DNA of 16,150 nt, from assembly GCA_031262135.1 (NCBI GenBank), contig JAISIG010000033.1, positions 1 to 16,150 of the forward strand, written 5' to 3'. The stretch comes from Endomicrobium sp. (GTDB lineage Bacteria > Elusimicrobiota > Endomicrobiia > Endomicrobiales > Endomicrobiaceae). How positions within the stretch are numbered: the first letter of the stretch is position 1; every line of letters begins with the position of its first letter. Shown here piece after piece: positions 8,878 to 9,988 of this stretch. The position numbers were made by a program, and so were the translations under genes. The notes below the pieces were generated by a model, which searched no databases, was not told where the DNA came from, and saw only the letters and a program-made list of their open reading frames with translations.

Positions 8878-9988
8878 ATGCATGTAAAAAGAATGCTTAG
8901 TTTATATAAAGATAGAATAAATATGATAAGAAGGTATCTTTAATATAAAGTTAAAGGAACAAAAGATACAACGCTTAGAAGCTAATATATTAAAGCCTCA
9001 TTTTTGGGATGACTCAATACATGCTATGGAAACTATTAATGTGTTGAATAATTTGAAAGATTTATGTTGCTCATTCAATAAGCTTTATACTCAAGTTGAT
9101 TATTTAATAGAATTAAAGCAAATTGCAAAATTAGAAGAAGATGAATCTCTCTTACAATCTATTAATATTGAAACAAAAAAATTAGAAAAAGAATTGTTAA
9201 TTTTTGAAGTTAAAGCTAATTTAAAGGATATGAAGCATTATAATAATGCTATTGTATCTATACACGCAGGAGCTGGTGGTACAGAAGCTTGCGATTGGGT
9301 GCAAATCTTAGTTAGAATGTATTCAAGATGGGCAGAAAACAAAAAATTTAAATTTAACATTGTAAACACATTGTATGGAGATGAAACAGGCATAAAAAGT
9401 GTAACTATAATTGTCCAAGGAGAATATGCTTATAACCTATTACAGTCTGAAATAGGAGTACATAGACTTGTAAGGATTTCACCTTTCGATTCAAACAAAA
9501 GACGACATACTTCCTTTTGTTCAGTAGATGTAATTCCAGAATTGGAAAAAGATATTGATATACTGATTAAAGGTAAAGATATCAGGATTGATACATATAG
9601 ATCATCAGGAGCAGGCGGACAACATGTCAATACAACTGACTCTGCTGTTAGAATAACACATTTAGCAACAGGGATAGTAGTCCAATCTCAAAATGAAAGA
9701 TCTCAAAATCAAAACAAGACAATAGCAATGAAACTATTGAGAGCTAAATTGTATCAATTTGAACATAATAAAAAACTATCTTATTGTGAACAACATTATC
9801 ATACACAAGATTCTATCCAATGGGGAAATCAAATAAGATCTTATGTTTTTATGCCATATAAATTAGTTAAAGATCACAGAACAGGATATGAAATGACACA
9901 GATTGATTTGGTAATTGATGGTAACATTGATGAATTTATTAATACTTATTTAATTTGGAAATTAAAAGAACACAATTCTCTTGCTTAG
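8878..9988 (+). CDS. prfB: Peptide chain release factor 2, programmed +1 frameshift
   Basis: RF2 ends translation at UGA and UAA. The gene is split: a short frame (8878-8943) ends MIRRYL then TAA, and skipping T8941 joins it to the main frame 8942-9988. The junction RRYL-NIKLKEQKIQRLEA aligns with E. coli RGYL-DYDAKKERLEE, proving that the upstream piece belongs here. The joined protein is 369 aa (E. coli RF2 has 365). It holds the RF2 stop-reading tripeptide SPF (residues 201-203) and the peptidyl-hydrolysis GGQ (246-248, SSGAGGQHVNTTDSAVRITH). The start is uncertain. ATG 8878 gives a family-like head length but abuts the AAAGG at 8873-8877, while ATG 8893 lies 15 bases after it. The Met at 9026 is internal. 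Its own stop is TAG, read by RF1. Five of fourteen genes here end in TGA, so RF2 is needed. lnt-prfB adjacency occurs in other bacteria. Confidence 0.95.
8929..8944 (+). promoter_or_regulatory. prfB +1 frameshift site with UAA stop
   Basis: The site reads AGA AGG TAT CTT TAA T. AGAAGG (8929-8934) is the internal Shine-Dalgarno-like element, three bases (TAT) before the slippery CTT (8938-8940), the same geometry as the E. coli AGG GGG TAT CTT TGA. Peptidyl-tRNA-Leu on CUU slips to UUU, and decoding resumes at AAT 8942. In the known mechanism low RF2 slows termination and favours the shift, making an autoregulatory loop. The stop here is TAA rather than TGA. Confidence 0.9.

What the first reader, a model, noticed from the sequence alone, without database searches (positions are those of the whole stretch)
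8929..8944. prfB frameshift site uses UAA instead of UGA
Seen: AGAAGG-TAT-CTT-TAA-T, with both flanking frames aligning to RF2, so the +1 shift is still required. Known: this element is found in most bacterial prfB genes and almost always has UGA, which only RF2 reads. That makes the shift a sensor of RF2 level. Inferred: UAA is read by RF1 as well, so RF1 would terminate at the site. RF2 synthesis would then report the combined RF1+RF2 supply, or run at a lower basal level. UGA remains a normal stop here (lepA, lepB, nfeD, hemW, aspS), so this is not due to loss of UGA as a stop. It may be a rewired or eroding control loop.
Basis: partly seen in the sequence, partly recalled or inferred. Interest (0 to 1): 0.72.

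Follow-up and report, generated by a model that had tools for sequence, protein, structure and literature searches.

The report
RF2 frameshift switch carrying a UAA
The gene for a protein that ends translation normally checks its own level through a built-in UGA stop signal; in this termite-gut symbiont that signal has become UAA, a rare but already described change that seems to have arisen several separate times in the symbiont's genus.

Summary
prfB reads AGAAGG-TAT-CTT-TAA-T at 8929-8944; ORF1 ends at this UAA and RF2 continues in the +1 frame. It is not a lone base error: of 38 genomes of the same genus in which the site could be read, 7 carry CTTTAA, 30 CTTTGA, and one has lost the frameshift. 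The genus is that of 'Candidatus Endomicrobium trichonymphae', now Endomicrobiellum, symbionts of termite-gut flagellates. The UAA forms are not one clade (AU p = 6.7e-7); at least five changes are needed, read most simply as four gains and one reversion. RF1 is unbroken in all seven. In the DNA sampled, neither GC content nor UGA stop usage separates UAA from UGA genomes. The variant itself is in print: Prince et al. 2025 found UAA in 1.4% of 8,164 motif-bearing genomes. Best reading: a +1 frameshift site, probably working, whose stop has drifted to a codon that both factors read, which weakens but probably does not abolish RF2 control. A pooled RF1+RF2 sensor is possible and untested. New here: the recurrence within one endosymbiont genus.

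The parts
8893..8943 (+). prfB ORF1 (frame 0), 16 sense codons then UAA; another in-frame ATG lies at 8878
   Evidence: a start 16 sense codons before the stop is found in 9 of the 10 other genomes with a frame-0 ORF listed (G027 has 18; G031, without the frameshift, has none)
8929..8934 (+). internal Shine-Dalgarno-like element AGAAGG, 3 bases before the slippery codon; weaker computed pairing (-4.2 kcal/mol) than AGGAGG (-10.5)
   Evidence: the 16S 3' end with CCTCC was read in 2 of 11 genomes searched, G006 and G299, not in G000
8938..8941 (+). slippery CTT_T: the P-site tRNA-Leu moves from CUU to UUU
   Evidence: Sequence; CTTT in 37 of 38 genus members read; mechanism from published work on E. 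coli
8941..8943 (+). in-frame UAA in place of the usual UGA; the +4 base is U (8944)
   Evidence: 7 of 37 motif-bearing genomes of the genus
8942..9988 (+). prfB ORF2, +1 frame: 348 aa of RF2 starting with Asn (AAT) and ending in TAG
   Evidence: SPF and GGQ are visible in the translation; GGQ in 7 of 7 UAA genomes and SPF read in 6 of 7

Best explanation
This is the classical prfB +1 programmed frameshift. A ribosome that translates the 16-codon ORF1 stops at UAA. If a release factor arrives, the short peptide is released. If it is slow, pairing of AGAAGG with 16S rRNA helps the P-site tRNA-Leu slip from CUU to UUU, and AAU is read next, giving RF2. With UAA both RF1 and RF2 can terminate, so fewer ribosomes should shift and the signal is less specific to RF2; RF2 probably still supplies much of the termination. 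The change arose by recurrent, nearly neutral G-to-A substitutions in an endosymbiont genus where precise RF2 control is under weak selection. Shown: sequence, frames, conservation, recurrence, unbroken RF1 and RF2 genes. Inferred: that the site shifts efficiently, who terminates at UAA, and the near-neutrality.
For: Frames and motif. UAA in 7 of 37 motif-bearing genomes of the genus, with CTTT and 3-base spacing kept in all 7. Minimum of 5 changes on the prfB tree and on the concatenated tree; one clade rejected, AU p = 6.7e-7. RF1 in all 7 UAA genomes. UGA stop use is equal: 109 of 420 ORFs in the 7 UAA genomes against 104 of 395 in 6 close UGA relatives, Fisher p = 0.94. The G-to-A step turns Asp into Asn; over 11 proteins 7 of 71 Asp columns show Asn at least as often, so such a step is within what the genus tolerates. 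G031 has lost the shift, as have G312 and G314 elsewhere in the family. The genus has eroding genomes (Mies et al. 2024, PMC11257099).
Against: No measurement of frameshifting or RF levels. The site changes more than most: 45 of the 71 Asp columns never show Asn, the mean is 5%, and none of the 11 Asp columns in prfB itself reaches the site's 7 of 37 (highest 14%), so positive selection is not excluded. G014 looks like a return to UGA inside a UAA clade, which could mean that UGA still matters. In a first pass on single regions the UGA stop share was higher in UAA genomes (0.33, n = 7, against 0.24, n = 29; p = 0.08); this was not seen with more sequence from 13 genomes.
Confidence: 0.55

Rival explanations
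1. Selected rewiring: UAA makes the site sense RF1 plus RF2 together, so RF2 output follows total UAA-terminating capacity in cells whose commonest stop is UAA.
For: UAA is the commonest stop in sampled ORFs of the UAA genomes (245 of 420); RF1 present in all 7; at least four gains on the simplest reading; the site changes more often than any of 11 Asp columns in prfB.
Against: UGA-site relatives use UAA about equally (223 of 395). In E. coli, prfB ribosome density is about 6 to 9 times that of prfA (526-737 against 83-87 RPKM in strains with RF3, PMC5373646), so RF1 may add little. No genomic covariate was found.
Confidence: 0.13
2. Regulation is already dead: the site is a costly relic on the way to an in-frame gene, and RF2 is made at a low unregulated level.
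For: G031 in the same clade is single-frame, and G312 and G314 in the family are too. The window's SD-like element is weak (-4.2 kcal/mol against -10.5 for AGGAGG).
Against: CTTT and spacing are kept in 7 of 7 UAA genomes; 5 of the 7 have pairing energies of -9.6 or stronger, three of them (G001, G027, G296) in one UAA clade. AGAAGG also occurs in 4 of 30 UGA genomes.
Confidence: 0.2
3. RF2-specific control is essentially unchanged because RF2 does nearly all UAA termination in this genus.
For: RF2 carries Ser or Ala at position 246 in all 37 genus members read, the canonical forms (PMC5373646). Prince et al. argue that UAA may be mainly read by RF2.
Against: RF1 is unbroken, with PxT and GGQ in the 6 UAA genomes whose motifs were read. 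The published survey finds UGA in 98.6% of motifs, which suggests that UGA and UAA are not equivalent.
Confidence: 0.2
4. Base error or assembly artefact at 8942.
For: Fragmented MAG, 49 contigs, 63% complete.
Against: Six other genomes carry CTTTAAT at the same place.
Confidence: 0.01

Closest known systems
prfB +1 programmed ribosomal frameshift (RF2 autoregulation; E. coli prfB)
   Same: Short ORF1, SD-like element 3 bases before CTT, CUU_U slippery run, stop readable by RF2, RF2 in the +1 frame
   Different: UAA instead of UGA; U instead of C at +4; Asn instead of Asp as first +1 residue; weaker SD-like AGAAGG
CTTTAA variants in the survey of Prince, Lin and Feaga 2025 (PMC12421855; abstract, passages and section 8 seen)
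   Same: Same motif and same stop change; [quoted passage not shown]
   Different: They describe UAA as not broadly fixed in particular clades (supplementary figure title: randomly distributed; figure not seen). Here it recurs within one genus and 4 of 5 members of one subclade carry it. 'Elusimicrob' does not occur in their main text; their genome tables were not open to me
Single-frame prfB genes (autoregulation lost)
   Same: G031 in this genus and G312 and G314 in the family
   Different: The window still needs the shift

Membership tests
prfB programmed frameshift motif | RF2 coding sequence split between frame 0 and frame +1 | tested here: met
prfB programmed frameshift motif | CTT_T slippery run directly before the stop | tested here: met
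prfB programmed frameshift motif | SD-like purine element 3 bases upstream of CTT | tested here: met
   AGAAGG at 8929-8934; weak pairing
prfB programmed frameshift motif | In-frame stop readable by RF2 (UGA or UAA; UAG in none of 8,164 genomes) | tested here: met
   UAA; criterion from PMC12421855
prfB programmed frameshift motif | RF2-specific stop UGA (98.6% of motifs; not universal, so not defining) | tested here: not met
   TAA at 8941-8943; UAA is a published variant of the same motif
prfB programmed frameshift motif | Weak-termination C at +4 (highly conserved, not universal, so not defining) | tested here: not met
   T at 8944; T in 34 of 37 motif-bearing genomes of the genus
prfB programmed frameshift motif | Frameshift efficiency rises when RF2 is scarce | not testable with these tools
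   Needs a reporter or ribosome profiling
Genome without RF1 (would make UAA RF2-only) | prfA absent or broken | tested here: not met
   prfA unbroken in the window genome and in the other six UAA genomes

The most novel reading that the evidence does not exclude
In Endomicrobiellum the RF2 switch has been rewired repeatedly, by selection, from an RF2-only gauge into a gauge of total UAA-terminating capacity (RF1 plus RF2), with at least four independent origins and one return to UGA.
Probability: 0.13. Interest if true: 0.65.

Novelty: new member of a known kind. Interest (0 to 1): 0.36.

Why it matters
The UGA in prfB is treated as close to invariant because only RF2 reads it. A single genus with several independent moves to UAA (four on the simplest reading), one apparent return to UGA and one complete loss is a natural experiment on how much RF2-specific sensing is worth, and it qualifies the published statement that UAA is scattered and not fixed in clades. 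It would not change the basic model of RF2 autoregulation.

Tried and rejected
Sequencing error: rejected, six other genomes share the base. Loss of RF1: rejected. UGA reassigned or rare as a stop: rejected, UGA ends 17% of ORFs of 150 aa or more in the 105,586 bases sampled of the window genome and 26% (109 of 420) in the pooled UAA genomes. AT pressure: not supported, GC of the prfB regions 0.330 (7 UAA) against 0.319 (29 of the 30 UGA; G012 too short), p = 0.43. Horizontal spread of one UAA prfB: not supported, the prfB gene tree rejects a UAA clade. Link with Ser246 of RF2: Ser in 5 of 7 UAA genomes and 4 of the 29 UGA-site genomes in which the residue was read (G012 unread; the frameshift-less G031 has Ala), but independent pairs agree in at most 2 of 5 and the sign test cannot reach 0.05. 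Confinement to one 18-genome subclade: all 7 lie there, but given branch lengths the chance of that is 0.12-0.18. A stronger SD-like element as compensation: not seen, mean -8.6 (7 UAA) against -9.1 kcal/mol (30 UGA). prfB's own terminal stop is TAG in 3 of 7 UAA genomes and 4 of 30 other genus members with a readable end, not pursued. The 16S 3' end was found in only 2 of 11 genomes searched. Sampling of other phyla was left out, since the published survey is far larger. The 2026 paper on loss of prfB autoregulation (PMC13245932, passages only) showed nothing on UAA sites in the passages seen. A first IQ-TREE run timed out and was replaced by quicker searches. The G018 rows are script artefacts (position before the contig end); its site was read. 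In one search my pattern for the SPF motif failed for every row; it was repeated.

Full report
WHAT IS THERE. The window is contig C2 of a 446,572-base, 49-contig, 63%-complete genome. prfB follows lnt and precedes psd (gene names come from reading the translations and from tblastn matches among relatives, not from a family library). Bases 8929-8944 are AGAAGG TAT CTT TAA T. ORF1 starts at ATG 8893 (or 8878) and ends at TAA 8943; RF2 continues from AAT 8942 to TAG 9988 in the +1 frame.

WHO IT IS. One relative in the same genus, G299, has a small contig identical over 5,518 bases to plasmid NZ_AP017460.1 of 'Candidatus Endomicrobium trichonymphae', and a second identical over 5,752 bases to NZ_AP017461.1. 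Mies et al. 2024 (PMC11257099; abstract and sections 6 and 10 seen) place that species in Endomicrobiellum, the flagellate endosymbionts of termite guts with eroding, AT-rich genomes. A term search of its main text for prfB, release factor, frameshift and stop codon found none. That the window lies in Endomicrobiellum rests on the tool's genus label plus this one named relative.

DISTRIBUTION. The genus holds 41 genomes. In 3 (G022, G023, G298) no RF2 match was found. Of the 38 read, 37 have the motif: 7 UAA (G000, G001, G006, G018, G024, G027, G296) and 30 UGA; G031 is single-frame. G018's prfB is split over two contigs; the site is on one of them. In the rest of the family (35 genomes) 29 have UGA and none was seen with UAA, 2 (G312, G314) are single-frame, 3 gave no RF2 match (G309, G315, G332), and G329 was not read; G318, G319, G320 and G330 were read only from the pattern text. 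In the remaining 264 genomes of the phylum a strict pattern found UGA in 40 and UAA in none; 224 matched neither, and the SD-like element was not checked for most of these. The pattern is not fully sensitive: in the genus it found 26 of 30 UGA and 5 of 7 UAA sites, and it missed the UGA site of G056. The UAA pattern allowed a gap of 305-335 bases, the UGA pattern 320-331. Its one UAA hit outside the genus, G312, is not a +1 site.

HISTORY. On a concatenated tree of up to 11 proteins the UAA rows need 5 changes, all forced by well-supported branches; counting the loss in G031 as well gives 6. This tree left out G292 and G293 for sparse data, and 18 rows are under half filled. The prfB tree alone, without the site's own residue, also needs 5 (5-95% bootstrap range 5-5) and rejects one clade (AU p = 6.7e-7). 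G000 is sister to UGA G017, G024 to UGA G297+G299, and G018 to UGA G008+G028; G006, G027, G296 and G001 form a clade with UGA G014 nested inside. G014 pairs with G001 (support 0.94 and 92), but that fork is open. The simplest reading is four gains and one reversion; four separate gains in the last clade cannot be excluded. All seven lie in one 18-genome subclade, but given branch lengths that could be chance (0.12-0.18).

COVARIATES. RF1 is present and unbroken in all 7 (motif residues read in 6, not in G296). No RF3 match at E <= 1e-100 in 41 of 41 genomes; many are incomplete and the limit is strict. UGA ends 109 of 420 sampled ORFs in the 7 UAA genomes and 104 of 395 in 6 close UGA relatives (p = 0.94); a first pass on one region per genome had leaned the other way (0.33 against 0.24, p = 0.08). 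GC of the prfB regions does not differ. RF2 residue 246 (E. coli numbering; Ala/Ser canonical per PMC5373646, passages seen; the position was placed by me from the YRxSGAGGQ stretch) is Ser in 5 of 7 UAA genomes and in 4 of the 29 UGA-site genomes where it was read (G012 unread); G031 has Ala. The sign never runs the other way in independent pairs, but there are too few pairs. The +4 base is T in 34 of 37 genus sites and, by my count from the rows, in 25 of 29 family sites against 7 of 40 elsewhere in the phylum, so the weak C context was probably lost before UAA arose.

HOW IT PROBABLY WORKS. The anatomy is the classical one (mechanism as described in PMC12421855 and PMC5009743, passages seen). 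UAA admits RF1, and UAA followed by U should terminate well (the abstract opening of PMC5289835, seen in a listing, says readthrough is reduced with +4U in E. coli), so the predicted effect is lower basal shifting and less RF2-specific control. How much RF1 matters is unknown: in E. coli prfB ribosome density is about 6 to 9 times that of prfA (PMC5373646), and Prince et al. argue that RF2 may read most UAA. The G-to-A step also changes Asp to Asn. Among 71 Asp columns (Asp plus Asn at least 95%) in 11 genus proteins, 7 are at least as Asn-rich as the site, 45 never show Asn, and the mean is 5%; none of the 11 such columns in prfB reaches the site's level. So the change is within what the genus tolerates but more frequent than usual; drift with relaxed constraint is my preferred reading, and mild selection stays open.

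NOVELTY. Prince et al. 2025 (PMC12421855; abstract, passages and section 8 seen) report UAA in 1.4% of 8,164 motif-bearing genomes, in several phyla, not broadly fixed in particular clades, and no UAG. The variant is therefore known. Searches for prfB together with Endomicrobium, for Endomicrobium with release factor, for Endomicrobiellum and for prfB with frameshift, UAA and endosymbiont returned no paper whose listing describes this case; of the papers they listed only PMC11257099 was opened, and the held library lacks most subscription papers. What appears new is the repeated origin inside one endosymbiont genus.

Noticed in passing
L122 (G031, prfB region): prfB has lost the frameshift: a single frame runs through a T-rich remnant. 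Its fetched region has the lowest GC of those read (0.238).
   Followed up: partly
window 8944 and family-wide: The base after the recoding stop is U in most Endomicrobiaceae sites (34 of 37 in the genus; 25 of 29 elsewhere in the family, counted), not the C that is conserved in most bacteria.
   Followed up: partly
L133 (G312) and L134 (G314): Two further family members have a single-frame prfB without a recognisable frameshift site.
   Followed up: no
window 9986-9988: prfB itself ends in TAG, which only RF1 reads, so finishing RF2 here needs RF1; TAG ends prfB in 3 of 7 UAA genomes and 4 of 30 other genus members with a readable end.
   Followed up: partly
genus-wide: No RF3 (prfC, TIGR00503) match at E <= 1e-100 in any of 41 genomes of the genus, many of them incomplete.
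   Followed up: partly
window 9590-9622 (RF2 stretch before GGQ): RF2 position 246 (E. coli numbering) is Ser here and Ala in the sister genome G017; Ser is commoner among UAA-site genomes, but the number of independent cases is too small.
   Followed up: partly
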